A stretch of 62,633 nt of DNA from Polyangiaceae bacterium (GTDB taxonomy: Bacteria > Myxococcota_A > Polyangia > Polyangiales > Polyangiaceae), in assembly GCA_009780955.1 (NCBI GenBank), contig WQZB01000017.1:1-62633 (forward strand). The letters run 5' to 3'. This document shows positions 16,346 through 49,664 of the stretch, piece after piece. The notes under the pieces were generated by a model. That model did no database searches. It saw only the letters and a program-made list of their open reading frames with translations, and was not told the DNA's origin. The translations under genes and the position numbers were made by a program. The first letter of the stretch is position 1. Each line of letters starts with the position of its first letter.

Positions 16346-19282
16346 ATGGCGTCTCGCATTCGGTCTTTTGTGCTCATCGTATTCTGCCTGTTCTACGTTG
16401 CAAGTTGGCCGGGTGCTCGCTTGCCACCGCTGCCATCGCGCGGTGCGGCCGCGGTAGCACCAGGCCATCCTGATAGCTACGGCGTGATCGACGTCGTCGT
16501 GCGCGCCGCCGATGGCGACAAGAACACGCTCGAGGGCGCGCGCGTGCGGGCTTTCGCCATGCTCGATGGCCGCGTGCAGGTAGCCGGCGATGTGGTGACC
16601 GACACCCTCGGGCGCGCAACGCTCACCGGCCTTGCCCACGCCGAGCACTGGATTGTCGCAGAAATAGCCCATCGCGCGCGCGCCACGCAAATGCTCGTCG
16701 TTGCTCCTGGCGCGCGCAGCCAACTCGACTTCGATCTTGGCGCCGAGCATGTACTCGATGTTGTCGTACAAACCGACCAAGGCGTGCCCGCTGAGAACGC
16801 GGAGCTCGAAGTGCGCGGCGCCGATCCATTCCCGGTCGGTGGGCGCACTGGCCCGGACGGGCGTGCACGCGCTCTTCGACTCGGCGAAGGGCCGTTCGTT
16901 GTCGTTGCGCGAAAGGCCGGCTTCGAAGAAGTAACGCGACGGAGCGCTCCGGAAGGGCAAGTGTGCACCATCACACTAGGCCGTCAGGGCGCGCTGGTCG
17001 TGAAGGTCATTTCGGAGGCAGGCGAAAGCGTGCAAAATGCACGCGTATGGATCGCATCGCCTGCGCTCTCGGCGGCGCGCGTCGCGGAAACTTCGGAGGA
17101 CGGCGTTGTCCGCATCGGTGGGCTCGACCCCGGCAGCTACGCGCTCAAGGCAACCATGGGCGCGCGGACATCGACTATCGAGCTCGGCATCGCGGTTAGC
17201 CGCGGCGACGACACGAACGTCGAACTAAGACTTGTGCCAGGAATCTTCGTTACCGCGCGCGTTACCGATGGCGCAACCGACGAGCCGGTCAGCAAGGCCC
17301 GCGTTACACTTGCCGAAGCGGGCCTCTCGCCATTTCCGATCGAAGGCCTCACGAATAACGATGGGCGTGTCGTGCTCGGGCCCATCGCACATGGCCCATC
17401 GACTCTGAGCGTGTCGGCCGATGGGTTCGTTACCAAGTCGGCCGTGCATGTGGGCGATCCGCCGCCGTCCGAAATCAGCCTTGCGCTTGCACGCGCAGGC
17501 ACGCTTGTCGGGCGCGTGGTCGATACGCGCGGCTTCCCGGTCGACGGCGCCACGATTCGCGTTATCGGCACCGACATCGACGGCATGCCCATCGATGAAG
17601 ATCCGCTTCGTTCGTCGTTTCGTGAGGCTCACTTCGAAGCCGCACTTGCACCGGTTCGGCCGCTCGTCCCAGCCGGCGAGCTCGGCGTGATGCCCGGACC
17701 CTTGCCCGACACGCCGCGCGGCAACGCCTTCGGACTCGTGTCGATGGCAACAAGCGTCACACCAAGCGAGCCGTGGATAACTTCGCGCGATGGGACATTC
17801 AAGGCAGCACCGGTAACGCCGGGGCGCGTGCGCGTGGTTGTTCGTCACCCGCAATACGTCGAGGCGATGAGCGATGTCGTTGCCCTTGCAAGCGATCGCG
17901 AAGTCAACGTTGACATTGTGCTCTCGCGTGGAGGAGCACTCGAAGGTCGTGTGATCGATTCGCGCGGCTGGCCTGTGGCGGGCGCGCGCGTGACCGCGGT
18001 TGCGATCCGCGGATCGTTCGAGCGAGTCGTGCAAACGGGGACCGATGGATCGTTTGCGCTCGCGTCAGTGCCGGACGCGCTCACAATTCTTGTTTCAAAG
18101 GGCGACGATGAGTCGCTCACAACGGCGCGCACGGAAGTTTCTGTGCCTGACGGCGATCGCAAATCCATCGAGATTGTGCTGCCTGAAGCGCGCGAGCCAC
18201 TTGCCGTTCGAGTCACCGGCGCTTACGGCGTGCCCGTGGATGCCGCGCAAGTTTCCGCAGTGTCGCTCGACCCAGGCGAGGCGCTGCGCACGACGGCGTT
18301 CACCGATGCACATGGTGACGCAGCGCTCGCTTCGGCAAAAGGGCTTTCGCTTCGCGTCGAAGTGCAGGCGCCAGGGTACGCGTCGAAAGTGATTGTGACG
18401 AGCCCCGACACGAGCGAGCTCGATGTGGAGCTCGCGGCCGGCGAAAGCATGGTGGGCGAGGTATGGGCGAACCGCCGCGAAACCATCGAGGGTGCCGAAG
18501 TCGTTCTGCAAACCGAGAATCATGTGTATCATGCACGCACAGATCGCGATGGCGGATTCGTTCTCGGCGATCTGGCTGCAGGCCCAGCTCACCTTCGCAT
18601 TCGTGCAAAGGGGCGCGCGCCCGTGGATCAGGATGTCGTGGTGGTGGACTCCGGCGGGCGCCACCCCACCGACATAGGCAAGTTGGTGCTGCCCGAAGAC
18701 GCCATCATCGAAGGCGTTGTGGTCGATGGCAAAGGCGATCCCGTGCCAGGTGCGCGCGTTGCCAAAGACTCGGTGCCAACCTACTTGCCAAGTGCGGTTG
18801 TTCCTCCTGGCGTGGCCGTGTGCGATGCGCGCGGGCGCTTTCGATTGGGCGAAATGCTCGAAGGCATCGCGGTGCTCGAGGCGTACGCGCCCGATGTCGG
18901 CCGTGGGCGCGCTACCGGCGTACGCGCTCTTTCCGGACATACGACCGACGGCGTAAAAATCGTGCTTGCAACCGATGGCGCAGCTCCGGGCGAGCCGCCT
19001 GCAACGGGAGGAGTGGCCGTGACGCTCGGTGAAACAATCGCCGGTCCACCCGAAATGGACACGCAAGTCGTGGTGGTTTCGGTGTCCGAAGGTTCCGAAG
19101 CAGAGCGAGCGGGGCTTGCGCCAAACGACGTTCTCGTGGAAGTCGGCGGCGCTGCGCCAACGAGCATCGTGGATGCGCGAGCGCGCCTTTCCGGACCGCT
19201 TCATGACGACGTGCTTGTCAAGGTGCGTCGAGACGAACGCATTCTGACGTTGCGCATAGTCCGCGAAGCCGTCACAAAGTAG
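16346..19282 (+). CDS. large exported carboxypeptidase-regulatory-like protein with C-terminal PDZ domain
   Basis: 978 residues with an N-terminal signal/anchor (FVLIVFCLFYVASW). The body is a string of Ig-like carboxypeptidase-regulatory (CarboxypepD_reg) repeats, each with a G-x-V-x(D)-x-G-x-PV-x-GA-x-V pattern, for example LVGRVVDTRGFPVDGA and LEGRVIDSRGWPVAGARV. The last 85 residues form a PDZ domain (VVVVSVSEGSEAERAGLAPNDVLVEVGG). Such proteins are extracellular or periplasmic scaffolds with no catalysis; the PDZ suggests binding of protein C-termini. It is followed 14 bp later by a secreted hypothetical, likely in one operon. A TGTATCATGCA motif lies inside at 18525. Confidence 0.8.
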   Translation: MASRIRSFVLIVFCLFYVASWPGARLPPLPSRGAAAVAPGHPDSYGVIDVVVRAADGDKNTLEGARVRAFAMLDGRVQVAGDVVTDTLGRATLTGLAHAEHWIVAEIAHRARATQMLVVAPGARSQLDFDLGAEHVLDVVVQTDQGVPAENAELEVRGADPFPVGGRTGPDGRARALRLGEGPFVVVARKAGFEEVTRRSAPEGQVCTITLGRQGALVVKVISEAGESVQNARVWIASPALSAARVAETSEDGVVRIGGLDPGSYALKATMGARTSTIELGIAVSRGDDTNVELRLVPGIFVTARVTDGATDEPVSKARVTLAEAGLSPFPIEGLTNNDGRVVLGPIAHGPSTLSVSADGFVTKSAVHVGDPPPSEISLALARAGTLVGRVVDTRGFPVDGATIRVIGTDIDGMPIDEDPLRSSFREAHFEAALAPVRPLVPAGELGVMPGPLPDTPRGNAFGLVSMATSVTPSEPWITSRDGTFKAAPVTPGRVRVVVRHPQYVEAMSDVVALASDREVNVDIVLSRGGALEGRVIDSRGWPVAGARVTAVAIRGSFERVVQTGTDGSFALASVPDALTILVSKGDDESLTTARTEVSVPDGDRKSIEIVLPEAREPLAVRVTGAYGVPVDAAQVSAVSLDPGEALRTTAFTDAHGDAALASAKGLSLRVEVQAPGYASKVIVTSPDTSELDVELAAGESMVGEVWANRRETIEGAEVVLQTENHVYHARTDRDGGFVLGDLAAGPAHLRIRAKGRAPVDQDVVVVDSGGRHPTDIGKLVLPEDAIIEGVVVDGKGDPVPGARVAKDSVPTYLPSAVVPPGVAVCDARGRFRLGEMLEGIAVLEAYAPDVGRGRATGVRALSGHTTDGVKIVLATDGAAPGEPPATGGVAVTLGETIAGPPEMDTQVVVVSVSEGSEAERAGLAPNDVLVEVGGAAPTSIVDARARLSGPLHDDVLVKVRRDERILTLRIVREAVTK
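18525..18535 (+). repeat. palindromic 11-mer TGTATCATGCA
   Basis: Exact match to the window-wide consensus TGYATYATRCA. It lies in a plus-strand gene and reads as codons xTG TAT CAT GCA (V-Y-H-A). Flanking bases G and C extend the palindrome to 13 bp. Confidence 0.7.
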
Positions 19283-19296
19283 GAAGAGGTATTTGC

Positions 19297-20112
19297 GTGA
19301 AGTATGCAGCAGTCTTTGCGGTGTTCGTCTCGATGCTTTTCGTGCACCTCGAGCCCGTCGCCATCGCGGCGCCGAAGCCCCAGCCCATCCTGCGGCTGCC
19401 CATGCTGCCAAGCATTGCGCGTGTAACCTTCGAGCTTGTGCGCGACAAGTCGCAAATGCAGGCTCTCATCGTCGAGGAGGTGAACCTGCCGCGCGGCGAC
19501 TGGCAGGGCGAGCCGCTCGACTTCTACGTGGCTTTTGGGGCGCCGGGCGTTCCGCAAGCCGTCGACGTGCGGATCGTATCCGTCATGGATGGTTTGCTCG
19601 AGGCAGAAAGCGATGCGCTCGGTGAGCCCGTTGCCATCACACGTGCGCCGAGCCGGCCGCCCAACGTGCATTCGCTTCTCGGCCGCGACACCATGGCGGG
19701 CTTCGTTATTCATCTTGGCAAGATTGCGTTCGCCAAAGCGCTTGCGCCGGGCAACATGGCCACGCTGCGCATCCGCTCGCTCGTCTTGCTGCCCGACGTA
19801 CCAAAAGGACAACCTCACACACTCGTCGTTCGGCTTGGCGCTTCGGGCAGCAGTCCGCTGCCAGTGGGTCGACTCTCGGTTCATAACCGTCCGGGCGCAC
19901 CCGTTGTCGCGCGTGCCGAGGCGCGCCTTTGCGGCGCTAGTGCCGATCCGCATCCGCTTGCAGTGGAGATTGCTCCGAAGCCGGCGGTCGCGCTGCCCGC
20001 GCCGCATGCGCCATCTGCCCCACCTGCAATAGGCGGCCCCGAGGCCCCCATAGCCCCGGTGCTTGCCGTGCGCCACGTGACGGACGACTTGTGTGTCGCC
20101 CTCTCTCTCTAA
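19297..20112 (+). CDS. secreted protein of unknown function
   Basis: 271 residues starting at GTG 19297, supported by the AGGAAGAGG ribosome-binding site about 8 bp upstream. The signal peptide is KYAAVFAVFVSMLFVHLEPVAIAA. The remainder is Pro/Ala/Val rich with no recognised domain; segments such as DFYVAFGAPGVPQAVDVRI suggest a beta fold. It lies 14 bp after the PDZ protein gene and ends convergent with the next gene, stops overlapping by 4 bp. It is likely a partner of the upstream scaffold, but its role is unknown. Confidence 0.7.
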   Translation: MKYAAVFAVFVSMLFVHLEPVAIAAPKPQPILRLPMLPSIARVTFELVRDKSQMQALIVEEVNLPRGDWQGEPLDFYVAFGAPGVPQAVDVRIVSVMDGLLEAESDALGEPVAITRAPSRPPNVHSLLGRDTMAGFVIHLGKIAFAKALAPGNMATLRIRSLVLLPDVPKGQPHTLVVRLGASGSSPLPVGRLSVHNRPGAPVVARAEARLCGASADPHPLAVEIAPKPAVALPAPHAPSAPPAIGGPEAPIAPVLAVRHVTDDLCVALSL

Positions 20113-21104
20113 TCCTGACTTGCGCTGTCGCTTTTCATGGCCACGTCAATGAAGATCCGAAGCGCTATCGAGATCATCGTTGCTGGATGATCGGCGACGA
20201 GATCGCGCCGTGCACTAACCTCGATCCCGAACCTTGGATCGGTGTATCCTACACCAAATCCTACGCCGTGAGTTTTCGTTCCGTCGTCGTAGCGGTAGCC
20301 GGCGCGCAGAGGAAGGCAGCCAGCCGCGATGTACTCGGCGCCAAGCATGGCGCGCGCGCGCGTGGTCGAATACGTGGTGAAGTCGAATTGCACATCGCCT
20401 TCGAGCGTTACCATGCCATTCGAGAAGCCAAGGCCGGTGCCGAGCAATACGGGCGCAAGTGACGTTTTCGTGGAGGTTAGGTTGTGACCGCTTACACCGA
20501 GGCGCACGCCCTCAGCCAAAGTGAGCGCGGCACCGGCGTCGAAGGTGAGTTGGTTGAAGATAGGCTTTGTGCTCGTGCCGTCGGAAGCGAGGCTTGCGCC
20601 GAGTGGGCCAGCCGCAGTGCGCTGCATCACACGAAGGTAGCGTCCCGTCATGCCGAGGCTAAATGCGTTGCCGAACAGGTAAGCGAGCGCAAGCCGAAGA
20701 TCGGTCCAACTGCGCTTGATTCCGTCCGGGTCCATTTCGTTCCACGTGCCGCCGATGCCGCCGGCGAGGCGCCCCTTTGAAGAATCGACAACGGCACCTC
20801 CGAAACTTTGTCGTCGTGCCTCGGGGCCGAACGCGGCCAGCCCTTCAAGGTGGTAAACGCGGCTTGCAAGCAGGTTTGCGGGGTTTTTGAAAAGCGCGCC
20901 CGTTGACCCTCCCCAGGCCTCGTCTGCTCCTGCCATTGCAACGGAGCGAGGCTCTTGAATTTCGCCAAGTTCGTAGCCTTGGTCGATGGTGGTTGACGAT
21001 CGATCGGCGTGTGCAGAAGCCGCCGCGGAAGCAACGCCTAGAAACGTTGCCACGGGCACCATCGACTTGCGCCAAGGAATGCAGAAGGAACGCACCGCGC
21101 CCAA
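20109..21104 (-). CDS. putative outer-membrane beta-barrel protein
   Basis: 331 residues with a signal peptide (VATFLGVASAAASAHA). The first mature segment, RSVAMAGADEAWGGSTGALFKNPANL, resembles the start of PorV/FadL-like barrels, where a GG-x-x-A-x-x-x-NPA(N/G)L pattern is typical. The rest alternates Gly and aromatic residues (LAGGIGGTWNEM, VGFGVGYTDPRFGIEVSARRD), consistent with beta strands ending in an outer-membrane barrel. Start at 21104 was kept because it gives a charged N-region; Met at 21062 is an alternative. Function unknown. Confidence 0.65.
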   Translation of the reverse strand: MGAVRSFCIPWRKSMVPVATFLGVASAAASAHADRSSTTIDQGYELGEIQEPRSVAMAGADEAWGGSTGALFKNPANLLASRVYHLEGLAAFGPEARRQSFGGAVVDSSKGRLAGGIGGTWNEMDPDGIKRSWTDLRLALAYLFGNAFSLGMTGRYLRVMQRTAAGPLGASLASDGTSTKPIFNQLTFDAGAALTLAEGVRLGVSGHNLTSTKTSLAPVLLGTGLGFSNGMVTLEGDVQFDFTTYSTTRARAMLGAEYIAAGCLPLRAGYRYDDGTKTHGVGFGVGYTDPRFGIEVSARRDLVADHPATMISIALRIFIDVAMKSDSASQD

Positions 21105-21729
21105 GGTAACAAGCCCGCTTTGACCGGGACAACCTTTCGCCCCCGCCGATGCCGCGGCTTGCTATGGCCCTGCAATTCCTGCAATTTGTGACACTTCGGT
21201 GACTCTTGACAGCCAAAACTCCGAAGATTGCGGCCCGCAGACGACTTGCCGACAAGAACACGCCCCGATTACCTAGCGACCACAAGGACTTACCATCCCC
21301 CGCTGCCACTGCATGGGCATGACGCGATTTTCACAGGTGGTTTACAAGGAATAAAACGAAGTATTATCAATTACTTGCGTCTGATTGAAACAATGGACAT
21401 GACGACGGCAATTCGGCGGTGCTACCTGGTATTCATGAGTCGTCGGGCAGCCGGCGATGAGTGTTTTGAGCACAATGAAGCGGATGACCTAAGAACACCG
21501 AACAGGTTGAAAGGCTGTGTGTTTTCGGCAAGTTCCGAAGTGCCTGGGCTGAATGGCACACGGATCCGCTAGTAACGCAAAGCGTTCCAATGAGAACGAC
21601 CTTTGGTTCGTTCGCAGGGGATCGCGTTGCATTGTAATGGAAATTGGCGAAAAAACCCAGCGGGTAACCTGATAACCTAATTCAGTGCTCTAACTTTTGA
21701 GTTGGGGCAATTCGATCGCAGAGCCAATA

Positions 21730-21770
21730 GACCGCTTTCAAGTTGACGCAAGTTCAAGGCGACGGCGGTG
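21730..21770. repeat. half copy of the GACCGCTTTC element
   Basis: GACCGCTTTCAAGTTGACGC followed by AAGTTCAAGGCGACGGCGG, preceded by TA. It is nearly identical to the first 40 bp of the complete short form at 21920-21967, but the closing GCGGTC arm is absent. Confidence 0.7.
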
Positions 21771-21919
21771 TTTGCATGTGCGAGTTTTGCGAGCTTTCAG
21801 CGTAAAAGTGAGTTGTTTCTTCGGTTATGCAGTTGCCGGCTGGGTGTTCCCGGTCAGCTCTGCGTTTCTCGAAGCGGGGGATGTTCTTCAAGAACCTAAA
21901 GGGTCTTTCTCACATATTG

Positions 21920-21967
21920 GACCGCTTTCAAGTTGACGCAAGTTCAAGGCGGCGGCGAGAAGCGGTC
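21920..21967. repeat. short form of the GACCGCTTTC element, 48 bp
   Basis: Starts GACCGCTTTCAAGTTGACGC and ends GAAGCGGTC, followed by TA. GACCGCTT and AAGCGGTC form a perfect 8-bp stem. The flanks CTTTCTCAC and GTGAGAAAG extend the inverted repeat outward. Confidence 0.75.
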
Positions 21968-22054
21968 TAGTGAGAAAGAGCGGCGCGAATCGCGAGTAAT
22001 GCACGTCGGGGTGGCGTGCATCCGAATTTGCCGCGTTGAATGTCGGTGCGTGGG

Positions 22055-22075
22055 TTTTCCACAGCATGTGGAAAA
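22055..22075. promoter_or_regulatory. inverted pair of DnaA-box-like nonamers
   Basis: TTTTCCACA and TGTGGAAAA face each other with a 3-bp GCA spacer, 52 bp before the dnaA start. Each differs from the classic DnaA box TTATCCACA by one base. The position suits autoregulation of dnaA or part of an origin. Confidence 0.5.
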
Positions 22076-22126
22076 CCTGTGCATGTTGTCTGGCTTTCGA
22101 TCGGCATTGACTGAGAATGGACGGAT

Positions 22127-23581: not shown

Positions 23582-23596
23582 CTGTCGCGGCAGGCC

Positions 23597-24799
23597 TTGT
23601 TGGGCCGAACTGTGCGCTTACTCTTGGTGGTTGACATGGGGGAAGGGACTTGCCGGGCGCCCACGCCGAGGGTGATCCGCGTCGTCGGAGGCTTCGCGCT
23701 TTTTGTAGTGAGTGCATCGTCCGCGTGTGCGGCTGGCCCGAGTGACGAGAACGCGTCGGTAGAGAGCGGTGCTGTCACCGGCGCATCGGTTGATTGCTCG
23801 CAAGTCCAGGTGCTCGGTCTCGGCTCCCCGGCGACGGGAACGCCAGCGCCGAAACTCGTTGGCCGCTACGATATGACCAACCCAGCGGGTCCAAAGTTCG
23901 ACTGGTCGGGCAACACCATCTCGGCGCGCTTCGAAGGAACTGAGGTGAGTGTGGGAATCATGGTGCCGGACGGCCAAAAGAACGGCTTTGTGTTCGAGGC
24001 CACCGTCGACGACTTGTCCCCCATCAAGTTCACCGTGCCGGGCGGACGCTCCTCGTATCGGCTCGCGTCAGGCCTGCCGGCTGGTGTGCACGAAGTTACG
24101 GTGATGCGCAGCAGCGAAGCGCTTGCCGGCACTACCATCTACACAGGCTTCAACCTTGGCAGCCATGGCACCTTCTTGCCGCCCATAGAGCACCCGCGAA
24201 AAATCGAGTTTGTTGGCGACTCCATGACCTGCGGTTACGAGAGCATCTATTTTGCCTACGGCTCGATTACGGCGCGAGCGCTGTCAGCCGACGCCACCAC
24301 GCTGTGCTTTCCGGGCAAAGGCGTTGTGCTCAACTACAGCGAAAGTCCGGGCGATGCCGACGCCAAGACGACGATTCCTCAATATTACGAGCGAACCCTT
24401 GCCACGCAGGCCGAGCCCACGTGGAGCTTTGCCGATCCGGAGCCGCAGGTTGTCGTTCTCAACGCCGGAACGAGCGATTTTCTGCGCGACGTAGACCAAA
24501 ACGGCGTGGCCGACGGCATCGATCTCGATGCATTTTACAACGGTTACTTGGCTTTCGTGCAGTTTGTGCGTGCACGCCGCCCGAATGCACACATCTTTCT
24601 CGCCGTTTCGCCCATGCTGACCGATGAATTCCCGCTTGCGAACGCGCGCAGCAACATGCGCGATGCGCTCGATCACGTGGTCACCACCGTGGCAAGTTCG
24701 GGCGACGCAAAAGTTTATCGCATTGAGTTTGTGGACATGGATCAACGCATGATGGCCGACGAACTCGTCAGCGTGATTCGCGCCGTAACCTGCTGGTGA
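23597..24799 (+). CDS. SGNH/GDSL esterase, carbohydrate esterase family 2-like, with apparent loss of the catalytic His block
   Basis: 400 residues (start 23597, or ATG 23636), with a signal peptide ending near SSACAAG. An N-terminal beta-sandwich segment (FDWSGNTISARFEGTEVSVGI) precedes an SGNH fold with EFVGDSMTCGYES (nucleophile Ser), as in CE2 carbohydrate deacetylases. Block III is VLNAGTSDF. The expected GCDxHP-x-x-x-x-H segment that brings the catalytic His is missing. The sequence goes straight from FVDMDQ to RMMADELVSVIRAVTCW, as if about 20 residues were deleted in frame. Activity is doubtful. The gene ends 9 bp before a 123-bp repeat. Confidence 0.75.
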   Translation: MLGRTVRLLLVVDMGEGTCRAPTPRVIRVVGGFALFVVSASSACAAGPSDENASVESGAVTGASVDCSQVQVLGLGSPATGTPAPKLVGRYDMTNPAGPKFDWSGNTISARFEGTEVSVGIMVPDGQKNGFVFEATVDDLSPIKFTVPGGRSSYRLASGLPAGVHEVTVMRSSEALAGTTIYTGFNLGSHGTFLPPIEHPRKIEFVGDSMTCGYESIYFAYGSITARALSADATTLCFPGKGVVLNYSESPGDADAKTTIPQYYERTLATQAEPTWSFADPEPQVVVLNAGTSDFLRDVDQNGVADGIDLDAFYNGYLAFVQFVRARRPNAHIFLAVSPMLTDEFPLANARSNMRDALDHVVTTVASSGDAKVYRIEFVDMDQRMMADELVSVIRAVTCW

Positions 24800-24807
24800 A
24801 ATTGTTA

Positions 24808-24930
24808 GACCGCTTTCAAGTTGACGCGAGATCGAGGCGGGGCCGAGGAGCGGACCGGAACAGCCTGCTGCGGCTTTGAGGACCGCACCGCAGGCACCAA
24901 CGAAGAGATCGCGTCAAATCGAAAGCGGTC
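24808..24930. repeat. full 123-bp GACCGCTTTC element
   Basis: Left end GACCGCTTTCAAGTTGACGC and right end GCGTCAAATCGAAAGCGGTC are near-perfect inverted repeats, preceded by TTA and followed by TCTA. The interior contains a second complementary pair (CGGACCGGAACAGCC...). It separates convergent genes, and the stop codon of the minus-strand FHA gene is 2 bp away. Confidence 0.85.
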
Positions 24931-24931
24931 T

Positions 24932-27127: not shown

Positions 27128-27307
27128 GCGTTCGGTCCCTTTGTCGACGCCTTCAGAAAGCGTCTTGCCGACGGCAAAGCGGACGATGCGTGAAAGCGCG
27201 CAGGCCCGCAATTGAAAGGGATTGTCAGGGACATGCGGCGACGCTGTCAATCAAACGCGCCCGTTTTTCCTCTCCCCAAACAAGAAAGCCATGCACAACG
27301 TGCGCGG

Positions 27308-27496: not shown

Positions 27497-27559
27497 GGCG
27501 TGGCGCGCGTTCAAACACCATGCCACGCGTTGCAATGAGAGTATTCCTGGGAGATTTGC

Positions 27560-27570
27560 TGTATTATGCA
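27560..27570 (+). repeat. palindromic 11-mer TGTATTATGCA
   Basis: Exact consensus match and the only intergenic one, between divergent genes (27496 minus, 27719 plus). Flanking C and G extend the palindrome to 13 bp. Its position would suit an operator. Confidence 0.7.
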
Positions 27571-29149: not shown

Positions 29150-29179
29150 TTCGGTTGACGAAGTCGAGGCGGTCGGCGT

Positions 29180-31962: not shown

Positions 31963-33576
31963 TTATACGGCCGATAGCCGGCGTTTGCCGTTCGACATTG
32001 TGCCCTCTTGGGGGGGCGCAAATGGGATTGCGTAGCGACCGCTGAAGCACGCATGGCAATAGTGTCCGGCGTCAGAGCCCCCTGACGAGTCGCCAATACG
32101 TGTGACAGCTTTGAGCATGCCTTCGATCGAGAGATAGCCAACCGAGTCGGCCGTGACGTAGCGGGCAATCTCGTCGATGCTGTGGCTCGAGGCGATGAGC
32201 TCGCGCCGTGTTGGTGTGTCGATGCCGTAGTAGCAAGGCCACTTGGTTGGCGGGCTCGAGATGCGCAAGTGCACCTCGCTCGCGCCCGCATGGCGGACCA
32301 TTTTGATGATCTTGCGTGAGGTTGTTCCGCGCACGATCGAGTCGTCGAGAACGACGACGCGCTTGCCGCGAAGAATGGGTTCGACCGGATTGAGCTTCAG
32401 GCGAACGCCGAAGTGGCGGATGGTCTGCTGCGGCTCGATGAAAGTGCGCCCGACGTAGTGCGACCGGATGAGGCCCATTTCGAATGGAATTCCAAGTGCG
32501 CCGGCATAACCGATGGCTGCTGGCACACCCGAATCAGGCACGGCAATCACCACATCGGCTGCGGCGGGGCGCTCTTTCGCGAGCGTGCGCCCAAGCTCTT
32601 TGCGTACCTCGTAGACGCTGCGGCCGTTCAGACTCGAGTCGGGGCGTGCAAAGTACACATATTCGAAGATGCAATGCTGCGCTTTTTGTGGGTTAGGCAA
32701 GCGAAGGCTGCGCATGCCGTCGCCGTTGATGACGAGCATCTCGCCGGGCTCGATGTCGCGCACGTACTCGGCGCCAAAGAGGTCGAACGCGGTCGGTTCG
32801 CTCGCAATGACATATGCCTCGTGGCGTGGCACAACGCCAAACTCGCTATCGCCAGCGCGTGATCGTGCCATTGGCGTTGCGGTTGCCAAAGCCAAAAGGC
32901 TATTTTTTTTCCGCCGTGATTTCCCGTCGCCAAGAAAGCGGCCTAAGCATAACGGGCGAATCCCGCGTGGATCGCGCACGGCAACCACGGTGTCGGTGGT
33001 GAGAAACAGAAGCGAGTAGGCACCTTGCACGTGTCCAAGGGCGCTCATGATGCGATCTTCGATGGCGATTTCTTGGCTGCGCGCAACGAGGTGAACGAGC
33101 ACCTCGGTGTCGGACGTAGACGAAAAAATGGAGCCGCTTGCCTCGAGCGTTGCGCGCAGCTCGTCTCCGTTCGTAAGGGTGCCATTGTGGCAGACTGCAA
33201 GCGATCCGCGTCCGGAGTCAACCGCGAAAGGCTGGGCATTGCGAATATGTGAGCCGCCCGCGGTGGAGTAACGAACGTGGCCGATGGCGATGTGTCCTGG
33301 CAGCTTTTTTAGTTGCGCGGCATCAAAAGCTTCCTGCACGAGTCCCATGGCGCGGTGAGCGTACATGCCCTCACCGTCGCTCGTGACGATGCCCGCGGAT
33401 TCCTGGCCGCGGTGCTGAAGTGCGTGCAGGCCGAGGTAAGCAATGTTGGCTGCTTCCGAATGGCCAAAAACCGCAAAAACACCGCATTGGTCGTGGAAGT
33501 GATCGCCCTTGACGTAATCTGAGGCGGCGGGCAATGCCCTGGACGTTGGATCAACCACGGTGAGATAACGGCGCAT
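31963..33576 (-). CDS. purF: amidophosphoribosyltransferase
   Basis: 537 residues. It makes phosphoribosylamine from PRPP and glutamine, the first step of purine synthesis. A propeptide of about 31 residues precedes the N-terminal nucleophile Cys ([20 protein letters not shown]). The glutaminase half carries [11 protein letters not shown] and IGHVRYST. The C-terminal phosphoribosyltransferase half has the PRPP loop [16 protein letters not shown]. All catalytic features are intact. It is the first gene of a two-gene unit with HMG-CoA lyase (8-bp gap), a pairing with no obvious metabolic logic. A short MITE-like repeat lies upstream. Confidence 0.97.
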
Positions 33577-39337: not shown

Positions 39338-39345
39338 GGAGCGAT

Positions 39346-40614: not shown

Positions 40615-40641
40615 GCGTGGCTTCTACCATGCGCACGCGCC

Positions 40642-41481: not shown

Positions 41482-41662
41482 CTCGGCCTGTTCCCCGTGT
41501 CGCAATAGGAAAAGAAAACAGCCAATGCATCAAGCAAAAGCAACGCCAACGAAGAGCCACGACACGACAAACTGCTCTCGTTTGGACAATTAACAATGTG
41601 TAACTCACGTCAGCGATGTGCACGATCCATTTTTGGGCAATCACAATGGCTGTCAGCCATTG

Positions 41663-43294: not shown

Positions 43295-44388
43295 GTGTGT
43301 AAGATCCGGTAGCTTTCGAACACCAGACCAAGATCGGTCGACTCATTCGTCTGGTGGGCTTGCGCGTTTTCGCCGGGCCCGAAATTGATGGCGGGTATGC
43401 CAAGAGCCGCAAATCGCGCGACGTCCGTCCACGCCTGTTTTGGTTCCACGCTGCGCGCGCCAGCCAGGGTAAGCCTTTGCACGAGGGGGTGGTTGTCGGC
43501 GGGACGCGCGCCAGGCGACACATCGGTAAACTCGACGCGGGTCGCGCCCCCCGCCGTGCCAACCAGCGCGAGCACGTCTTTCTGCGCTTGCTCCGTCGAA
43601 GTGTCTGGCGCGAAGCGGTGGTTGATGTTGAGCGAGAAGGCATCTGGAACGATGTTGCGACCACGGCCGCCGCTCGCGAGCGTGACAGTGGTTATGGTTC
43701 GGTAAATATGCCCTTCGACGCGATGTTCGATGGGCCGGAGCTCGCCGAGCTTTGCCAACAAACCCGCAGCCTTCGTGATGGCGTTGTCGCCCTCCCACGG
43801 GCGAGCGCTATGCCCCGTTTTGCCAAGGAACCGTACGGTTGCATGAATGGAACCGCAGCAGCCCACGTGAACCTTGTTGTCGGACGGCTCGAGGCATACG
43901 GCAAGATCAACGTTGCGGAGGTCGGGATCTCGCTCGATCACGAGGCCAAGCTCGTTGTCGGCAAAAGGGCCTTCTTCGCGCGCATAAAAAACGAGCGTGA
44001 GATTGCAGCCTACGAATTGGGTGGCCGTTTCGGCCAAGACAATCATAACGGACAGGCCGCTTTTCATGTCGGCCGAGCCGGCGCCGTAGCAACGACCGTC
44101 TTCGACGCGACAAGGGCCGTTTTCCGTTTGCACGGTGTCGAGGTGCCCGACGAGCGCAACATGCGGACGGCGTGGCCCGTACTTTCGAACCAGCGGCACA
44201 ACGATGGAATTTCCGTAGCGTCGGATACGTGCTGCAAGCGGCAAGCGCGTCAGGCGTTCTTGCACGGCATCGCAAAGAGCGCGCTCTTCACCGGTGGGCG
44301 ATGCAATCGAACAAAGCCAAAGAAGCGTTTCTTCGAGCACCACAGACATGGGCATGCGCATGTCCACGGTTGTGCGCGAAATGCTCAC
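43246..44388 (-). CDS. dapE: succinyl-diaminopimelate desuccinylase (DapE, M20 family)
   Basis: 380 residues from GTG 44388, backed by a GGAG ribosome-binding site 7 bp upstream. It should hydrolyse N-succinyl-LL-diaminopimelate in lysine and peptidoglycan synthesis. Di-zinc M20 residues are present: LVGHLDTVQTENG, GSADMKSGLSV, FYAREEGPFADNELG, CLEPSDNKVHVG and the last His in GENAQAHQTNESTDL. The actinobacterial-type DapE resembles it most; a related acyl-lysine hydrolase is the main alternative. It follows ndk by 29 bp and overlaps the helicase start. Confidence 0.85.
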   Translation of the reverse strand: MSISRTTVDMRMPMSVVLEETLLWLCSIASPTGEERALCDAVQERLTRLPLAARIRRYGNSIVVPLVRKYGPRRPHVALVGHLDTVQTENGPCRVEDGRCYGAGSADMKSGLSVMIVLAETATQFVGCNLTLVFYAREEGPFADNELGLVIERDPDLRNVDLAVCLEPSDNKVHVGCCGSIHATVRFLGKTGHSARPWEGDNAITKAAGLLAKLGELRPIEHRVEGHIYRTITTVTLASGGRGRNIVPDAFSLNINHRFAPDTSTEQAQKDVLALVGTAGGATRVEFTDVSPGARPADNHPLVQRLTLAGARSVEPKQAWTDVARFAALGIPAINFGPGENAQAHQTNESTDLGLVFESYRILHTWLSRSDLTNTMPSKP

Positions 44389-44417
44389 CGTTATTCTCCG
44401 TCAAATTTTTCGTCACT

Positions 44418-44849
44418 TTAGCTCGCGACGGGAGCGACTTTGTTTGCCGCGAAGAAGTAGGCAATTTCGATGCGCGCGTTTTCGAGCGAATCAGACCCAT
44501 GAACAGCATTTTCGCCGACGCTGGTGCCGTAAAGCTTACGAATCGTGTTTGCGTCGGCCTTCGCGGGATCGGTTGCGCCCATGACTTTGCGATAGTGCAT
44601 GACGGCGTTTTCGCGCTCGAGCACAACGAGAAAAACTGGCGATCGAATCATGAAATCGACCAGCTCGCCGAAAAATGGGCGTGCCCGATGCACGGCATAG
44701 AAGCCTTCAGCTACCGGGCGAGTAAGCTGCACGCGCTTGCACGCGAGGATTGAAAAGCCAGCTTCTTCGAGCAGGGCGAGGATCGCGCCCGCTTTCTTCT
44801 TTTCAACGGCATCGGGCTTGATGATGCAAAGGGTGCGTTCGACGGACAT
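44418..44849 (-). CDS. ndk: nucleoside diphosphate kinase
   Basis: 143 residues from the ATG at 44849, typical for NDK. A much longer open frame runs upstream to 45347 but overlaps sucD in another frame and is spurious. It equalises NTP pools by phosphate transfer through a phospho-His. Signatures are [18 protein letters not shown] at the start, the substrate segment [18 protein letters not shown], and the active-site [12 protein letters not shown]. It sits 23 bp after sucD, which makes NTP, so the pairing is metabolically sensible and common. Confidence 0.97.
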
Positions 44850-44872
44850 CACTTTTCTCCCAAAGCTCCGAG

Positions 44873-45796
44873 CTACTTCATCATTGATTGCAGCGTGGAA
44901 GCCATGTCGCTCGGCGTTGGCGCAACTTTCGCCCCTGCCTTGGTGAGCGCCGCGATTTTCGCCGCCGCCGTGCCCTGGCCGCCGGAAATGATCGCGCCGG
45001 CGTGGCCCATTCGCTTGCCAGGCGGCGCTGTTACGCCCGCGATGAACGCAGCGACAGGCTTGGTCATCTTCGCTTTGATGAATGCCGCGGCGCGCTCTTC
45101 GGCGCCGCCGCCGATTTCGCCAATCATGATGATGCCGTGAGTGTTGGGATCGTTTTCGAAGAGTTCGAGCACGTCGACGAAGTCCATGCCGCTGACCGGA
45201 TCGCCGCCAATGCCAATGCCAGTGGACTGGCCAATGCCAAGCGCGGTTAGCTGACCTACGGCTTCGTAGGTGAGTGTGCCAGACCGCGAGACAACGCCAA
45301 TGTGACCTGGCCTGTGAATGTGGCCGGGCATAATGCCGATTTTGCACTCGCCCGGTGTGATGATGCCAGGGCAGTTCGGGCCGATGAGTCGCGGGATGCT
45401 TTTGCCCTGGTTACGGCGCTCGGCTTGCTTGGCTTCGAGCACGCGCCGGACGCCGAGCATGTCGATGACAGCAATGCCTTCCGTGATGCAGACAACGAGG
45501 TCGAGATCGGCATCGAGGGCTTCAAGAATCGCATCGGCTGCTCCCGGCGGAGGAACGAAGATGACGGTCGCATTGGCGCCCGTTGCTTTTGCCGCCTGGC
45601 TGACCGTGTCGAACACCGGCACTTTTGCGGTGCCAGCGGGTGCATTGTGCACGAATGTTTCGCCGCCTCGCGTGGGCGTGACACCGGCCACGACGCGGGT
45701 GCCGTATTCGATCATCTGCTTGGCATGGAATGATCCCGCGCCGCCGGTGATTCCTTGGACAATAAGCCTCGTGTCTTTACCGACCAAGATGCTCAT
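44873..45796 (-). CDS. sucD: succinyl-CoA synthetase alpha subunit
   Basis: 307 residues. With SucC it converts succinyl-CoA, ADP/GDP and phosphate to succinate, ATP/GTP and CoA in the TCA cycle. The CoA-binding Rossmann domain starts [22 protein letters not shown]; the ligase domain has the phosphohistidine segment in [13 protein letters not shown] and GNPCPGI-type loop [22 protein letters not shown] (split here for length). The start overlaps the sucC stop by 4 bp (ATGA), so the subunits are translationally coupled. Confidence 0.98.
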
Positions 45797-47001
45797 CGTG
45801 CACCTCCGGAAACAGCGTTGACGATTTTCTGCGCGCCATCCGCCATGGTTGTGGCGGCCGTGATGGCAAGGCCGCTATCGTTCAAAATTTTCCGACCGAG
45901 CTCGACGTTCGTGCCTTCGAGGCGAACGACGAGCGGCACCTTGAGCCCGAGTTCTTTTGCAGCAGCCACAACGCCGAGCGCGATGACATCGCACTTCATG
46001 ATGCCACCGAAAATGTTGACGAAGATGGCCTTTACCTTCGGGCTTTTTAGGATCATGGTGAAGGCTTTGGTGACTTGCTCTTGCGTGGCGCCGCCGCCAA
46101 CGTCGAGGAAGTTGGCAGGGGCAACGCCGCGGCTTTCACCGGCGTGCTTGATGATATCCATCGTGGCCATGGCAAGGCCCGCGCCGTTGACGAGGCAGCC
46201 AACGTTGCCGTCGAGCGATACGTAGTTGAGGCCTGCACTTTTTGCTTCGAGTTCGACCGGGTCTTCCTCGGCGTCGTCGCGAAGATCGCCCCAAATTTTG
46301 TGGCGGAAATCGGCGTTGTCGTCGAAGTTGACTTTTGCGTCGAGCGCCACGATGTCGCCATTTCGGAGAACCGCGAGTGGGTTGATTTCGAGCAGCGAAC
46401 AGTCTTCTTTGACGAACGCTTCGTACAGCGAACTCATGAGGCGAACGAACTTGGCAACGGTGTCTTTGCCGTGCTGCATGAGGCTGAGACCAAAGGCCAG
46501 CTCGCGCGCTTGGTAGGCCGAAAGACCAACGGCTGGGTCGACGTGGACTGTGAGAATTTTCTCTGGTGAGTGCGCGGCAACTTCTTCGATTTCCATGCCA
46601 CCTTCCGTGGATGCGATGAAGGCGATGCGGCGGCGATCGCGGTCGACGAGCGCGCTGAGATAAAGCTCGCGGACCATGTCGAGACCTTGCTCGATGTAGA
46701 GGCGGCGCACCTTCTGGCCTTCAGGGCCAGTTTGATGCGTGATGAGCTGCATGCCGAGGATTTTCTCGGCGAGCTTTCTTGCTTCCGCGGCGCCGCCTTT
46801 GGCAACCTTCACGCCGCCGCCTTTTCCACGGCCACCAGCGTGAATTTGCGCTTTTACGACAACGACTTGGTTGCCCGTTTCCGCGATGAGTTTTTTGGCG
46901 GCTGCTTCCGCCTCATCAACGGTGAATGCAGGATAGCCTTTAGGAACGGGTACGCCGTATTTGGCGAAGACCTGTTTGCCTTGGTACTCGTGGATCTTCA
47001 C
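45793..47001 (-). CDS. sucC: succinyl-CoA synthetase beta subunit
   Basis: 402 residues. The N-terminal ATP-grasp domain opens [20 protein letters not shown] and contains [21 protein letters not shown], which binds the nucleotide. The C-terminal ligase domain has [17 protein letters not shown] and [13 protein letters not shown]. Nucleotide choice (ATP or GTP) is not clear. The gene is preceded by a strong terminator belonging to mdh, so sucCD-ndk-dapE-helicase probably have their own promoter in the 169-bp gap. Confidence 0.98.
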
Positions 47002-47018
47002 GGCGCGGACGGTACCAG

Positions 47019-47059
47019 AAAAAAAACCGCCCGGGCGCGAGATTCACGCGCCCGGGCGG
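47019..47059 (-). terminator. strong intrinsic terminator after mdh
   Basis: A perfect 13-bp stem (CCGCCCGGGCGCG with CGCGCCCGGGCGG, 7-nt loop) is followed on the minus strand by eight T residues (47026-47019). It sits between the mdh stop (47171) and the sucC start (47001) and should separate their transcripts. Confidence 0.85.
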
Positions 47060-47089
47060 CTGTTATTCACGACGCAACGCGTTGCAGAC

Positions 47090-47164
47090 GTGGGGCACCC
47101 ACAAGGGGTGCCCCTACAGCCAACAAAACGCATATTCGTAGGGGCACCCCTTGTGGGTGCCCCA
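47090..47164. repeat. pair of GTAGGGGC-family palindromes
   Basis: 47090-47117 (GGGGCACCC/GGGTGCCCC, ending CCCCTAC) and 47139-47164 (GTAGGGGCACCCC/GGGTGCCCC) face each other across a CAACAAAACGCATATTC linker. They lie in the mdh 3' region. Confidence 0.8.
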
Positions 47165-47170
47165 TATTCG

Positions 47171-48109
47171 TTAGCTCTTTTTCACGACATCGACGATGCC
47201 CTGAACGCTCTTGGCGCTCTTGGTGAGCATGGCTTTCTCGTCGTCGGTGAGGGGGATCTCGACGACTTTCTCGACGCCTTTGCCGCCCACGATGCACGGC
47301 ACGCCCATGAAAAGATCGCGATAGCCGTATTCGCCGTCGAGGTAGGCCGCGCAAGCGAGCAGGCGCTTTTGATCGAGCAAGTAGGCCTCGGCCATGGCAA
47401 CAGCGGCTGTTGCGGGCGCGTAGTACGCGCTGGTGCCCATGAGCGCCAGAACTTCGCCGCCGCCTTTGCGGGTTCGGTCGACGATGGCAGCAATTTTGTC
47501 TTTGGCAATGAATTGCGTTGCCGGCACGCCATGAATGGTTGTCATCGACAGAACTGGGACCATGTCGTCGCCGTGGCCGCCAAGAACCATCGACCGCACG
47601 TCCTTGACGCTGACGCCCGCTTCACGCGCGAGAAAGAGCTGAAAGCGAGCCGAATCGAGCACACCCGCCATGCCGGCAACCATGCCTTTCGGGCAGCCCG
47701 TGACGCGCTTGTACTCGTAGACCATGGCGTCGAGCGGATTCGAAATGACGATGACGAAAGCGTTTGGACAATGTTTCTTCGCGTTGTTTGCGACATCGCG
47801 AATGATGGGAAGGTTGATGGCGATGAGGTCGTCGCGCGACTGCCCAGGCTTGCGGGGGATGCCAGCTGTGACGATGAGAACGTCGGCACCTTCGAGATCG
47901 GCCCATTTGGCCGTGCCGCGAACGAATGAGTCGTAGCCGAGAATGGCGCCGTTCTGTTCGAGATCGAGCGCTTTGCCTTTGGCAAAATTTTCTTTTGGTG
48001 CAATGTCGAAAAGATAAACGTCACCGAGCTCGCGATTCGCGCATAGGCGGGCGAGCTCGCCGCCGATGTTGCCAGCACCAATGAGTCCGATCTTTTTGCG
48101 GGTAGGCAT
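47171..48109 (-). CDS. mdh: malate dehydrogenase (LDH-like type)
   Basis: 312 residues from the ATG at 48109. It oxidises malate to oxaloacetate with NAD. The dinucleotide fold begins KKIGLIGAGNIGGELARL with Asp at the end of beta-2 (YLFDI). The specificity loop GIPRKPGQSRDDLI carries the Arg typical of malate rather than lactate enzymes, and the catalytic His is in LGGHGDDMVP. It belongs with sucCD downstream as a TCA-cycle block, but a terminator separates them. The in-frame upstream extension runs towards the 146-bp repeat and is unlikely to be translated. Confidence 0.96.
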   Translation of the reverse strand: MPTRKKIGLIGAGNIGGELARLCANRELGDVYLFDIAPKENFAKGKALDLEQNGAILGYDSFVRGTAKWADLEGADVLIVTAGIPRKPGQSRDDLIAINLPIIRDVANNAKKHCPNAFVIVISNPLDAMVYEYKRVTGCPKGMVAGMAGVLDSARFQLFLAREAGVSVKDVRSMVLGGHGDDMVPVLSMTTIHGVPATQFIAKDKIAAIVDRTRKGGGEVLALMGTSAYYAPATAAVAMAEAYLLDQKRLLACAAYLDGEYGYRDLFMGVPCIVGGKGVEKVVEIPLTDDEKAMLTKSAKSVQGIVDVVKKS

Positions 48110-48184
48110 GGAGAGATCCTTTCGCCGTCTGGGCCGAGCCCGGAGGTGCACGCCGTCATATCACATAGGCATCGATTGGGGATG

Positions 48185-48329
48185 AGAGCATGTTTACCAG
48201 CCGTCGCGAGCGGCGCGAGACCAAGGCGGGCCCGAGGAGCCCGCGTAAGCGTACGTTGTGGTACGTGCGCAGGCACCGCAGGGCCCAACGACGGCATCGC
48301 GTCGCGCAGCAGGCTGGTGAACATGCTCT
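48185..48329. repeat. 146-bp palindromic element, copy 2 (145 bp)
   Basis: Ends AGAGCATGTTTACCAGCC/GGCTGGTGAACATGCTCT. Internal arms differ from copy 1 but stay paired: GCGGCGCGA with TCGCGTCGC (one G-U), and GGGCCC with GGGCCC. The central loop is conserved. It lies between mdh and the aminotransferase gene. Confidence 0.85.
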
Positions 48330-48332
48330 GAG

Positions 48333-49664
48333 TCAGTCGATGGCTCCCAGGGCTTCGCCCACCGCGTCAAACAGCGTGTCGAGCTCTTTGCGCGTGGTGA
48401 TGAAAGAAGGCGAAAATTGGAGCGTGTCGCCGCCGAAACGCACGTAAAAGCCTTTCTTCCACAAGCGCATGGCCGCTTCATACGGTCGCACGATGCCATC
48501 TCCGCCTCGTGCGGCGAGCTGCAGTGCGCCCGCAAGACCGCAGTTGCGAATGTCGACCACATGGCGTGCGCCGCGAAGGCCGTGGATGGCGTTCTCGAAG
48601 TGCGGAGCGAGCTCGCCAGCTCGAAAAACGAGGTTTTCGCGTGCCATGATCTCCATGGTGGCAAGGGCCGCCGCGCACGCCACCGGGTGCGCCGAATAGG
48701 TGTAGCCATGCGCAAACTCGATTGCGTACGGCGGGGTTTTTTGATCCATGAACGTGTCGTAAATTTCGCTTTTCGCGATGACGGCGCCCATGGGAATGGC
48801 ACCGTTGGTGATTTGCTTGGCCACGTTCATGATGTCGGGCACGACGCCAAAGTAGTCGGCGCCAAACATTTTGCCGGTGCGCCCAAAGCCGGTAATCACT
48901 TCGTCGAAGATGAGCAGAATGTCGTGCCGATCGCAGATTTCGCGCAGGCGTTGCAGGTAGCCAACGGGCGGAACGATGACGCCGGCGGAGCCCGACATGG
49001 GTTCGACGATGACGGCCGCAATATTCGATGCATCATGCAACTCGATGAGCCTCAGCAACTCGTCGGCGAGCTCGACGCCTTTTTCGGGCATGCCACGGCT
49101 GAATGCGTTGCTAGGCAAGAGCGTGTGGGGAAGGTGATCGACGTCCATGAGTGCGCCGAAGTCGCGGCGGTTTCCACCAATGCCGCCAAGGGCTGTGCCG
49201 CCAACGTTGACGCCGTGGTAGGCACGCGCCCGGCCAATGAGCTTCGTTTTCGTTGGCTTGCCTCGAAGGCGATGGTAGGCGCGCGCCATTTTGATCGATG
49301 TGTCGGCGCTTTCGGAGCCTGAGTTGGTGAAAAAAACATGGTTTAGCCCCGCGGGCGTAAGCTTCGCGATCGTGTCGGCGAGCTGAAACGAGAGACGATG
49401 GCCGTATTGGAAGCCCGGCGCGTAATCGAGCGTGCCTAGCTGGTGCGATACGGCGTCCTGGATTTCTTTGCGCGCGTGACCGGCGCCGCAGCACCACATA
49501 CCCGAGAATGAATCGAAAATTTTGCGGCCGCCGTCGTCGGTGAACGTGTTGCCTTCGGCTGCAACGATGATGCGCGGATCTTTGTGAAAGGCACGGTTTG
49601 CCGTGGTTGGCATCCAGTGCGCGCGCAAGTTGAGATCGCCTGTGGCAGTGCGAAGCTGACTCAT
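48333..49664 (-). CDS. class III aminotransferase, omega-amino acid:pyruvate type
   Basis: 443 residues from the ATG at 49664; the longer frame to 49916 overlaps the M20 gene. A PLP enzyme with the class III features: GMWCCGAGHARKEI, FFTNSGSESADTSIKMAR, AYHGVNVGGTALGGIGGNR, LLIFDEVITGFGRTG (Asp for the pyridine N), and Lys in NVAKQITNGAIPMGA. The best match is beta-alanine/omega-amino acid--pyruvate transaminase. It may feed beta-alanine or putrescine-derived amines into central metabolism. It contains a TGCATCATGCA motif at LHDA (49029). Confidence 0.9.
   Translation of the reverse strand: MSQLRTATGDLNLRAHWMPTTANRAFHKDPRIIVAAEGNTFTDDGGRKIFDSFSGMWCCGAGHARKEIQDAVSHQLGTLDYAPGFQYGHRLSFQLADTIAKLTPAGLNHVFFTNSGSESADTSIKMARAYHRLRGKPTKTKLIGRARAYHGVNVGGTALGGIGGNRRDFGALMDVDHLPHTLLPSNAFSRGMPEKGVELADELLRLIELHDASNIAAVIVEPMSGSAGVIVPPVGYLQRLREICDRHDILLIFDEVITGFGRTGKMFGADYFGVVPDIMNVAKQITNGAIPMGAVIAKSEIYDTFMDQKTPPYAIEFAHGYTYSAHPVACAAALATMEIMARENLVFRAGELAPHFENAIHGLRGARHVVDIRNCGLAGALQLAARGGDGIVRPYEAAMRLWKKGFYVRFGGDTLQFSPSFITTRKELDTLFDAVGEALGAID
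49029..49039 (+). repeat. palindromic 11-mer TGCATCATGCA
   Basis: Exact consensus match in the aminotransferase gene; coding strand xTG CAT GAT GCA (L-H-D-A). Confidence 0.7.

What the first reader, a model, noticed from the sequence alone, without database searches (positions are those of the whole stretch)
18525..49039. Over-represented palindromic 11-mer TGYATYATRCA, mostly hidden inside genes
Exact copies were found at 18525, 27560, 30346, 31280, 37631, 39436 and 49029. With equal base frequencies about 0.1 is expected in 62.6 kb (62633 x 8 / 4^11), and fewer in GC-rich DNA. Six copies lie in six unrelated genes (PDZ scaffold, DUF192, HMG-CoA lyase, alaS, glycosyltransferase, aminotransferase), always in codon phase xTG YAT NAT RCA. 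The centre is C or T on the plus strand in all seven, whichever way the gene runs. No copy was found in the first 18 kb or the last 13 kb. This looks like a DNA-level signal, for example sites for a dimeric chromosome-organising or segregation protein or a methyltransferase, rather than a protein motif.
Basis: partly seen in the sequence, partly recalled or inferred. Interest (0 to 1): 0.78.

Follow-up and report, generated by a model that had tools for sequence, protein, structure and literature searches.

The report
Conserved genome-wide DNA palindrome inside genes
In this bacterium and about a third of the searched members of its family (named relatives are Polyangiaceae, myxobacteria), the chromosome carries roughly two hundred to 2,000 copies of one short mirrored DNA word, many of them held at the same places inside genes even where the encoded amino acids change; it is likely the landing site of a still unidentified paired protein that would organise the chromosome.

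Summary
The seven 11-mers are there (0.15 expected) and TGYATNATRCA occurs 150 times in the 4.2 Mb genome. The true core is TGYA-N3-TRCA: 1,108 copies against 140 for the same halves spaced N4. It is not a codon artefact: 231 copies in sampled genes against 28.5 +- 5.1 after synonymous shuffling. Of 30 sites alignable to a relative with median 79% protein identity, 20 are at the same position, 10 of them with an amino-acid change. One-mismatch versions are mostly near chance. The halves vary independently, against an RNA hairpin. A/T preferences reach +-10 bp in five of five genomes (+-12 in four). In the family 34 of 108 genomes are enriched. In one complete chromosome density falls with distance from dnaA. 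Best reading: sites of an unidentified dimeric chromosome-organising protein (0.45). Main rivals: a HIP1-like methylation/repair effect (a candidate methyltransferase is in 33 of 34 enriched but also 44 of 74 other genomes) and a DNA-uptake word. The binding protein was not found.

The parts
494..504 (.). TGYA-N3-TRCA site TGCAGCTTGCA
   Evidence: core match
1742..1752 (.). TGYA-N3-TRCA site TGCATCTTGCA
   Evidence: core match
5904..5914 (.). TGYA-N3-TRCA site TGTATTTTGCA
   Evidence: core match
7169..7179 (.). TGYA-N3-TRCA site TGTATTTTGCA
   Evidence: core match
9237..9247 (.). TGYA-N3-TRCA site TGCAAAATACA
   Evidence: core match
12687..12697 (.). TGYA-N3-TRCA site TGCAATTTGCA
   Evidence: core match
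17031..17041 (.). TGYA-N3-TRCA site TGCAAAATGCA
   Evidence: core match
20243..20253 (.). TGYA-N3-TRCA site TGTATCCTACA
   Evidence: core match
24529..24539 (.). TGYA-N3-TRCA site TGCATTTTACA
   Evidence: core match
32647..32657 (.). TGYA-N3-TRCA site TGCAAAGTACA; conserved letter for letter in G010
45641..45651 (.). TGYA-N3-TRCA site TGCATTGTGCA; not conserved in G010
58837..58847 (.). TGYA-N3-TRCA site TGCAGTCTACA
   Evidence: core match
59470..59480 (.). TGYA-N3-TRCA site TGCATCGTGCA
   Evidence: core match
61289..61299 (.). TGYA-N3-TRCA site TGCACAATGCA
   Evidence: core match

Best explanation
TGYA-N3-TRCA is a chromosome-wide gapped palindromic DNA site, present 1,108 times in this genome and in large part conserved position by position inside genes, and it is likely bound by a dimeric chromosome-organising protein that has not been identified. 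Shown: the spacing specificity, the abundance, the DNA-level conservation in the sampled genes, independent half-sites, A/T-rich flanks out to +-10 bp (to +-12 in four of five genomes), roughly proportional presence in coding and non-coding DNA, and strong enrichment in about a third of one family. Inferred: each half-site would be read by one subunit of a dimer whose arms or bent DNA path would touch the A/T flanks. The many sites would spread the protein along the chromosome, more densely around the origin, where it would fold, mark or partition the nucleoid in the manner of SlmA, Noc or MatP but with far more sites. Losing a site would be mildly harmful, so the sites would be held by purifying selection that overrides codon choice and even amino-acid choice.
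For: Only the N3 spacing is strongly enriched: 261 against 34.8 expected in G000 (N2 39/33.2, N4 33/34.7, N5 47/34.6); 36/1.0 in G021 and 108/3.9 in G022; 143/12.2 in G010. Synonymous shuffle: 231 against 28.5 +- 5.1, largest of 30 shuffles 40; codon-order shuffle 19.0 +- 5.1. G000 against G010, 67 reciprocal-best-hit genes: 20 of 30 sites at the same position; T and A third-codon bases inside the motif identical in 47 of 60 against about 19.3 expected. The alaS site is kept with VHDA in one and VQDT in the other and is a perfect site in L079, L080 and L086 too. Half-site variants in G000 are CC 106, CT 119, TT 36 against 105/121/35 if independent; A at -10 and T at -9 are enriched in all five genomes tested, p from 1e-5 to 1e-25. 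Of 261 sites 231 lie in genes, 23 intergenic, 7 at edges, with 89.2% coding. In complete chromosome G097, site counts in 44 stretches fall with distance from dnaA (Spearman -0.39, p 0.009; N4 control -0.14, p 0.35).
Against: No cognate protein was found. A ParB/Noc-type paralogue is not supported: 7 of 10 enriched genomes have a single ParB_N match. No stand-alone Fis-like protein was seen in G000 or G022 (shortest HTH_8 frames 252 and 468 aa; G021 lists frames of 60 and 194 aa that were not followed). Spacing is close to random. One-mismatch sites are mostly near chance, sharper than I would expect of a regulator. Flank match does not predict which sites are conserved (1.45 against 1.7, p 0.50), and A at -12 is not significant in G021 (p 0.57). 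The gradient rests on one genome, core-gene content was not controlled (only 15 G097 genes could be classed as conserved), and parAB there lies 6.7 Mb from dnaA. Selection on more than 1,000 weak sites one by one is demanding; a biased-conversion process could hold them without it. The N2 and N4 controls are also somewhat above the synonymous shuffle (36 against 21.6, 27 against 18.6).
Confidence: 0.45

Rival explanations
1. HIP1-like site: the palindrome is made and kept by a DNA methyltransferase together with methyl-directed repair, as proposed for highly iterated palindromes of cyanobacteria. A conserved N6/N4-type methyltransferase (here MTase-A, L043:3558-4511) would read the site.
For: Elhai 2015 (PMC4390886; abstract and twelve passages seen) reports that HIPs track methyltransferases. 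G022 has one full-length PF01555 match, 61% identical over 284 residues to a G000 protein. MTase-A relatives (best E <= 1e-90) occur in 33 of 34 enriched genomes; the exception, G107, has a 64%-identical match over query residues 178-313 in a 160-aa frame. Among the 31 genomes without a match at that threshold only G107 is enriched. The all-or-none pattern is enzyme-like.
Against: MTase-A is also in 44 of 74 non-enriched genomes, and the association was not corrected for descent. Preferences reaching +-10 to +-12 bp go beyond what I would expect of a methyltransferase (recalled). C5 methyltransferases were not found in 8 of 10 enriched genomes. MTase-A's target is unknown; its nearest named NCBIfam and PDB relatives are distant.
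Confidence: 0.22
2. DNA-uptake signal: the word marks kin DNA during natural transformation and spreads by biased uptake and recombination (molecular drive).
For: Mean gaps of 2.0 to 3.2 kb and near-random placement in four genomes, presence inside genes, sharp consensus, conserved positions and patchy distribution among relatives fit what is known of DUS/USS (recalled).
Against: Known uptake words are asymmetric (recalled); this one is a palindrome with independent halves. No receptor was sought. A search for papers holding 'DNA uptake sequence', 'palindrom' and 'deltaproteobacteria' together found none, which is weak evidence.
Confidence: 0.15
3. Dispersed operators of an ordinary transcription factor, for example of the GntR/FadR type or a LuxO-type Fis helix-turn-helix activator, most of them non-functional.
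For: The LuxO box TTGCA-N3-TGCAA (figure-legend passage in PMC3352281) and the FadR site (recalled) share the 4-3-4 geometry.
Against: No intergenic excess: 23 of 261 intergenic where about 11% of the DNA is non-coding. Non-functional sites would not be conserved. More than 1,000 copies.
Confidence: 0.1
4. Codon or peptide artefact, or an RNA hairpin in mRNA.
For: The six window genes share a codon phase.
Against: Synonymous and codon-order shuffles; 67 and 121 distinct peptides in the two main phases; half-sites combine at random rather than in complementary pairs, and intergenic copies occur roughly in proportion.
Confidence: 0.02

Closest known systems
HIP1 (GCGATCGC) and alternate HIPs of cyanobacteria
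   Same: A palindrome massively over-represented genome-wide, in some lineages and not in near relatives.
   Different: Gapped and degenerate (TGYA-N3-TRCA), A/T flanks, another phylum, no matched methyltransferase shown. Around 500-2500 per Mb for HIPs (passage of PMC4390886) against about 264 per Mb in G000 and about 480 in G022.
SlmA, Noc and MatP sites (chromosome-organising DNA sites)
   Same: Palindromes for dimers, scattered and often inside genes, distribution related to the replication axis (recalled); density falls away from dnaA in G097.
   Different: Tens of sites in the known systems (recalled) against 1,000-2,000 in the densest genomes; no consistent ParB/Noc paralogue; the protein is unknown.
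DNA uptake sequences (DUS/USS)
   Same: Similar density, in-gene placement and sharp consensus (recalled).
   Different: Symmetric here; no uptake evidence.
LuxO box TTGCA-N3-TGCAA
   Same: Same core geometry and nearly the same letters.
   Different: Promoter sites upstream of a few genes; here genome-wide and mostly intragenic, with Y/R tolerance.

Membership tests
HIP (highly iterated palindrome) | Over-represented palindrome genome-wide, in coding DNA, above codon expectation | tested here: met
   (codon shuffle on a sample of 704 genes)
HIP (highly iterated palindrome) | A methyltransferase specific for the word or its centre is present when the word is frequent | tested here: inconclusive
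   MTase-A in 33 of 34 enriched and 44 of 74 other genomes; its specificity is unknown
HIP (highly iterated palindrome) | GCGATCGC or a related ungapped GC-rich palindrome | tested here: not met
   gapped TGYA-N3-TRCA
SlmA/Noc/MatP-type chromosome-organising sites | Palindromic site of a dimeric DNA-binding protein | tested here: inconclusive
   palindrome, independent halves and flanks fit; no protein identified
SlmA/Noc/MatP-type chromosome-organising sites | Non-uniform distribution along the origin-terminus axis | tested here: inconclusive
   one genome, 44 stretches, Spearman -0.39, p 0.009; core-gene content not controlled, parAB far from dnaA
SlmA/Noc/MatP-type chromosome-organising sites | Cognate gene (ParB-like Noc) present as a second ParB | tested here: not met
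   one ParB_N match in 7 of 10 enriched genomes, two or three in G046, G077, G097; TetR-like and MatP-like proteins not tested
DNA uptake sequence | Site-dependent uptake of DNA | not testable with these tools
   needs a transformation assay
DNA uptake sequence | Asymmetric word (recalled) | tested here: not met
   palindrome with independent halves
Restriction-modification recognition site | Base modification at the site | not testable with these tools
   no long-read data held
Transcription-factor operator | Enrichment upstream of genes | tested here: not met
   23 of 261 intergenic, 7 at edges, coding fraction 89.2%

The most novel reading that the evidence does not exclude
Part of the Polyangiaceae runs an undescribed chromosome-marking system: up to 2,000 individually conserved binding sites written inside coding sequence, strict enough to dictate which amino acids a protein may use (VHDA or VQDT at one alaS position), read by a dedicated dimeric protein that shapes the nucleoid outward from the origin.
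Probability: 0.4. Interest if true: 0.85.

Novelty: new variant of a known kind. Interest (0 to 1): 0.7.

Why it matters
Genome-wide palindromes of unknown purpose (HIP1) are a long-standing puzzle known mainly from cyanobacteria. This looks like a second, independent case in another phylum, with a longer consensus, near all-or-none specificity, site-by-site conservation that overrides protein sequence, and close relatives that lack it. Those contrasts make the question of what makes and keeps such words directly testable by pull-down, long-read methylation and comparative genomics. It also shows a DNA-level constraint shaping protein sequences.

Tried and rejected
Rejected: codon or peptide artefact and RNA hairpin; regional clustering in the window; regular spacing of sites (gaps under 400 bp are rarer than random in G000, 15 against 29.7, near random in G010 and G022, commoner in G021, 10 against 4.9); C5 methylation as the general cause; a consistent second ParB. 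The idea of two dimers on opposite faces, from TRC/GYA flanks one turn apart, is not supported as a separate element: TRCNTGYA alone is at most 1.9-fold enriched (G022, where TRCATGYA is 20 against 5.5). Looking for the cognate gene beside intergenic or clustered sites and beside the 14 extended-consensus matches found in 8 of 12 genomes gave no shared neighbour that I recognised; one gene that looks by eye like the same phosphosugar-mutase-like gene holds the site internally in three genera (L188, L192, L196; family not tested). HTH_8 scan of five genomes, with G021 and G057 scored on 150 of 171 and 150 of 169 candidates, was not discriminating. Splitting genes into conserved and other classed only 6 to 15 genes per genome as conserved and gave no clear result (G010: 0 sites in 11.5 kb conserved, p 0.036; G000, G022, G097 not significant); the 67 gene pairs shared with G010 hold 0.39 sites per kb against 0.30 in all called genes. 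Literature, listings only unless stated: the motif written five ways (one paper, on LuxO boxes, passages seen); over-represented palindromes or motifs with myxobacteria (15 of 191 listed); uptake words (none); HIP1 (10 of 10 and 8 of 9 listed); chromosome-site proteins. None of the listed titles and abstracts reports this motif; the library holds open-licence PMC papers only.
Full report
Observation. The seven TGYATYATRCA copies are at the stated coordinates, with 0.15 expected by shuffling. The window is one contig of a 4,199,173-base assembly. The named Myxococcota relatives of its alaS include Polyangiaceae, Labilithrix and Sorangium. A held relative of the same genus, G010, has a 69,293-base contig C12 carrying alaS, the length of record WQYX01000012.1, Polyangiaceae isolate Emb289P4bin34. 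The genome holds 150 TGYATNATRCA and none of the reversed word.

What the motif is. In 862,633 sampled bases (40 stretches plus the window) the motif occurs 36 times against 1.2-1.9 expected under Markov models of order 1 to 6; other spacings are at chance. The fifth base is tolerant (T to A 15-fold, G 9-fold, C 5-fold), so the core is TGYA-N3-TRCA. It is enriched 261/34.8 in G000, 36/1.0 in G021 and 108/3.9 in G022, with N1, N2, N4 and N5 spacings near expectation (largest departure N2 in G022, 7/3.8), and 143/12.2 in 440 kb of G010. The common codon phase has a simple part-explanation: in the other main phase the centre codon of the narrow motif is TNA, a stop when N is A or G.

Not codons, not RNA. 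Of 261 sites 231 are in called genes, 23 intergenic and 7 at edges, with 89.2% coding; phases are 125, 92 and 14. Shuffling synonymous codons within each gene gives 28.5 +- 5.1 where 231 are observed (N4 control 18.6 against 27, N2 21.6 against 36). The halves carry C or T independently: CC 106, CT 119, TT 36 against 105/121/35 in G000, and close to expectation in four other genomes. A hairpin would favour complementary pairs. One-mismatch sites lie between 0.26 and 1.80 times the shuffled expectation over 33 variant-by-sample combinations, the clearest excess being A4 to G in G000 (141 against 84.0), while perfect sites are 7.8 to 12 times above it.

Extended footprint. A at -10 and T at -9 are enriched in G000, G010, G021, G022 and G097, from four genera: A/T is 63-76% at these positions against 34-40% background. 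The N4 controls that have at least 28 half-sites (G000, G010, G097) show 17-33% at -10 and 43-47% at -9. A at -12 is enriched in four of the five, not in G021 (p 0.57). Against its importance, flank match does not separate conserved from lost sites.

Conservation. Between G000 and G010, 67 reciprocal best hits of at least 55% identity (median 79%) contain 30 alignable G000 sites, of which 20 are sites at the same position in G010; in the other direction 20 of 31. T and A at third positions inside the motif are identical in 47 of 60, against about 19.3 expected from the same genes. Control palindromes are too few to compare: of N2, N4 and N5 together, 4 of 11 were conserved. Ten of the 20 conserved sites have an amino-acid change in the overlapping codons. 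In alaS, of 39 loci aligned, 6 have a perfect site at the position of the window's site: L076 and L156 (both G010), L079 and L158 (apparently one genome), L080 and L086, with the variable letters changed; the other 33 have none there. Among those without it are loci of enriched genomes: L159 (G006) and L160 (G074), which have a site elsewhere in the gene, and L164 (G022), which has none.

Distribution among genomes. In all 108 genomes of the family that the search returned, the N3/N4 ratio is 2 or more in 34 and at most 1.46 in 74; the top values are 28.2 (G039, 2,004 copies), 24.7 (G022, 1,682) and 23.3 (G038, 1,000). In most non-enriched relatives N3 is rarer than N4 (median ratio 0.52); I did not test whether this is avoidance. 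In the 283 phylum genomes, where only the reversed word served as control, the highest counts are in this family; outside it the highest are G333 489/154 and G160 409/364. Some outside genomes have a high ratio on few copies, such as G147 34/2, G345 63/6 and G301 160/24; these were not examined, so weaker cases elsewhere are possible.

Along one complete chromosome. G097 (12.24 Mb in one contig starting at dnaA) was sampled in 40 stretches over 0-7.8 Mb and 4 on the other arm. Counts are 36 in 0-4 Mb and 14 in 4-8 Mb (p 0.0026; N4 11 and 9), and 3, 2, 3, 1 on the other arm; Spearman with distance from dnaA is -0.39, p 0.009. Core-gene content is a possible confounder, and parAB lies at 6.7 Mb, so the origin assignment rests on dnaA.

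Candidates for the reader of the site. PF00145 methyltransferases were not found in 8 of 10 enriched genomes. PF01555 proteins are in all 16 genomes tested; G022 and G039 each list one full-length match, and that of G022 is 61% identical to MTase-A of G000. MTase-A at best E <= 1e-90 is in 33 of 34 enriched and 44 of 74 other genomes: compatible with a necessary but not sufficient factor, or with shared descent. In G000 it lies beside a DrmMI-like protein; in G022 no restriction-like neighbour was recognised by eye. ParB_N: one match in 7 of 10 enriched genomes, so no consistent Noc-like paralogue. HTH_8 proteins are numerous and not discriminating.

Judgement. The palindrome, the independent halves and the symmetric A/T flanks point to a dimeric DNA-binding protein. 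Genome-wide, mostly intragenic, individually conserved sites, denser near dnaA in the one genome mapped, point to a chromosome-level role. The near all-or-none pattern and the MTase-A association keep a HIP-like mechanism open, and density and placement keep an uptake word open. Nothing beyond sequence and comparison has been shown.

Noticed in passing
L043:1228-4511 (G000 contig C5): MTase-A lies directly downstream of a 783-aa Eco57I/DrmMI-like methyltransferase; MTase-A relatives are spread through the family and are a candidate family-wide orphan methyltransferase.
   Followed up: partly
family-wide counts: In most non-enriched relatives TGYA-N3-TRCA is rarer than the N4 version (median ratio 0.52), possibly avoidance; a codon-phase cause was not excluded.
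   Followed up: no
L274 (G097:C1 near 6.7 Mb), L278 (G114:C1 near 5.37 Mb): In two single-contig genomes parAB lies far into the record; in G097 dnaA is at base 1, so parAB would be about 5.5 to 6.7 Mb from dnaA.
   Followed up: no
L056:9086-9195 (G022): A lipoprotein-like gene has 33-bp coding repeats, four successive copies of which each carry a perfect site.
   Followed up: partly
G000 sample: Other odd-length palindromes are over-represented: GGGGC-N-GCCCC 14 against 0.8 and CGAGC-N-GCTCG 47 against 15.1.
   Followed up: no
L029:19894-19911, L167:17376-17393, L174:1695-1712: Overlapping double sites: three half-sites repeated every 7 bp.
   Followed up: no
L044:19224-19598 and L055:14499-15170 (G000): Two predicted ORFs share a similar N-terminal sequence, apparently a dispersed repeat, each next to an intergenic site.
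   Followed up: no
G147, G345, G301 (phylum search): Outside the family a few genomes have many more TGYA-N3-TRCA than the reversed control on low counts (34/2, 63/6, 160/24); a spacing control was not run on them.
   Followed up: no
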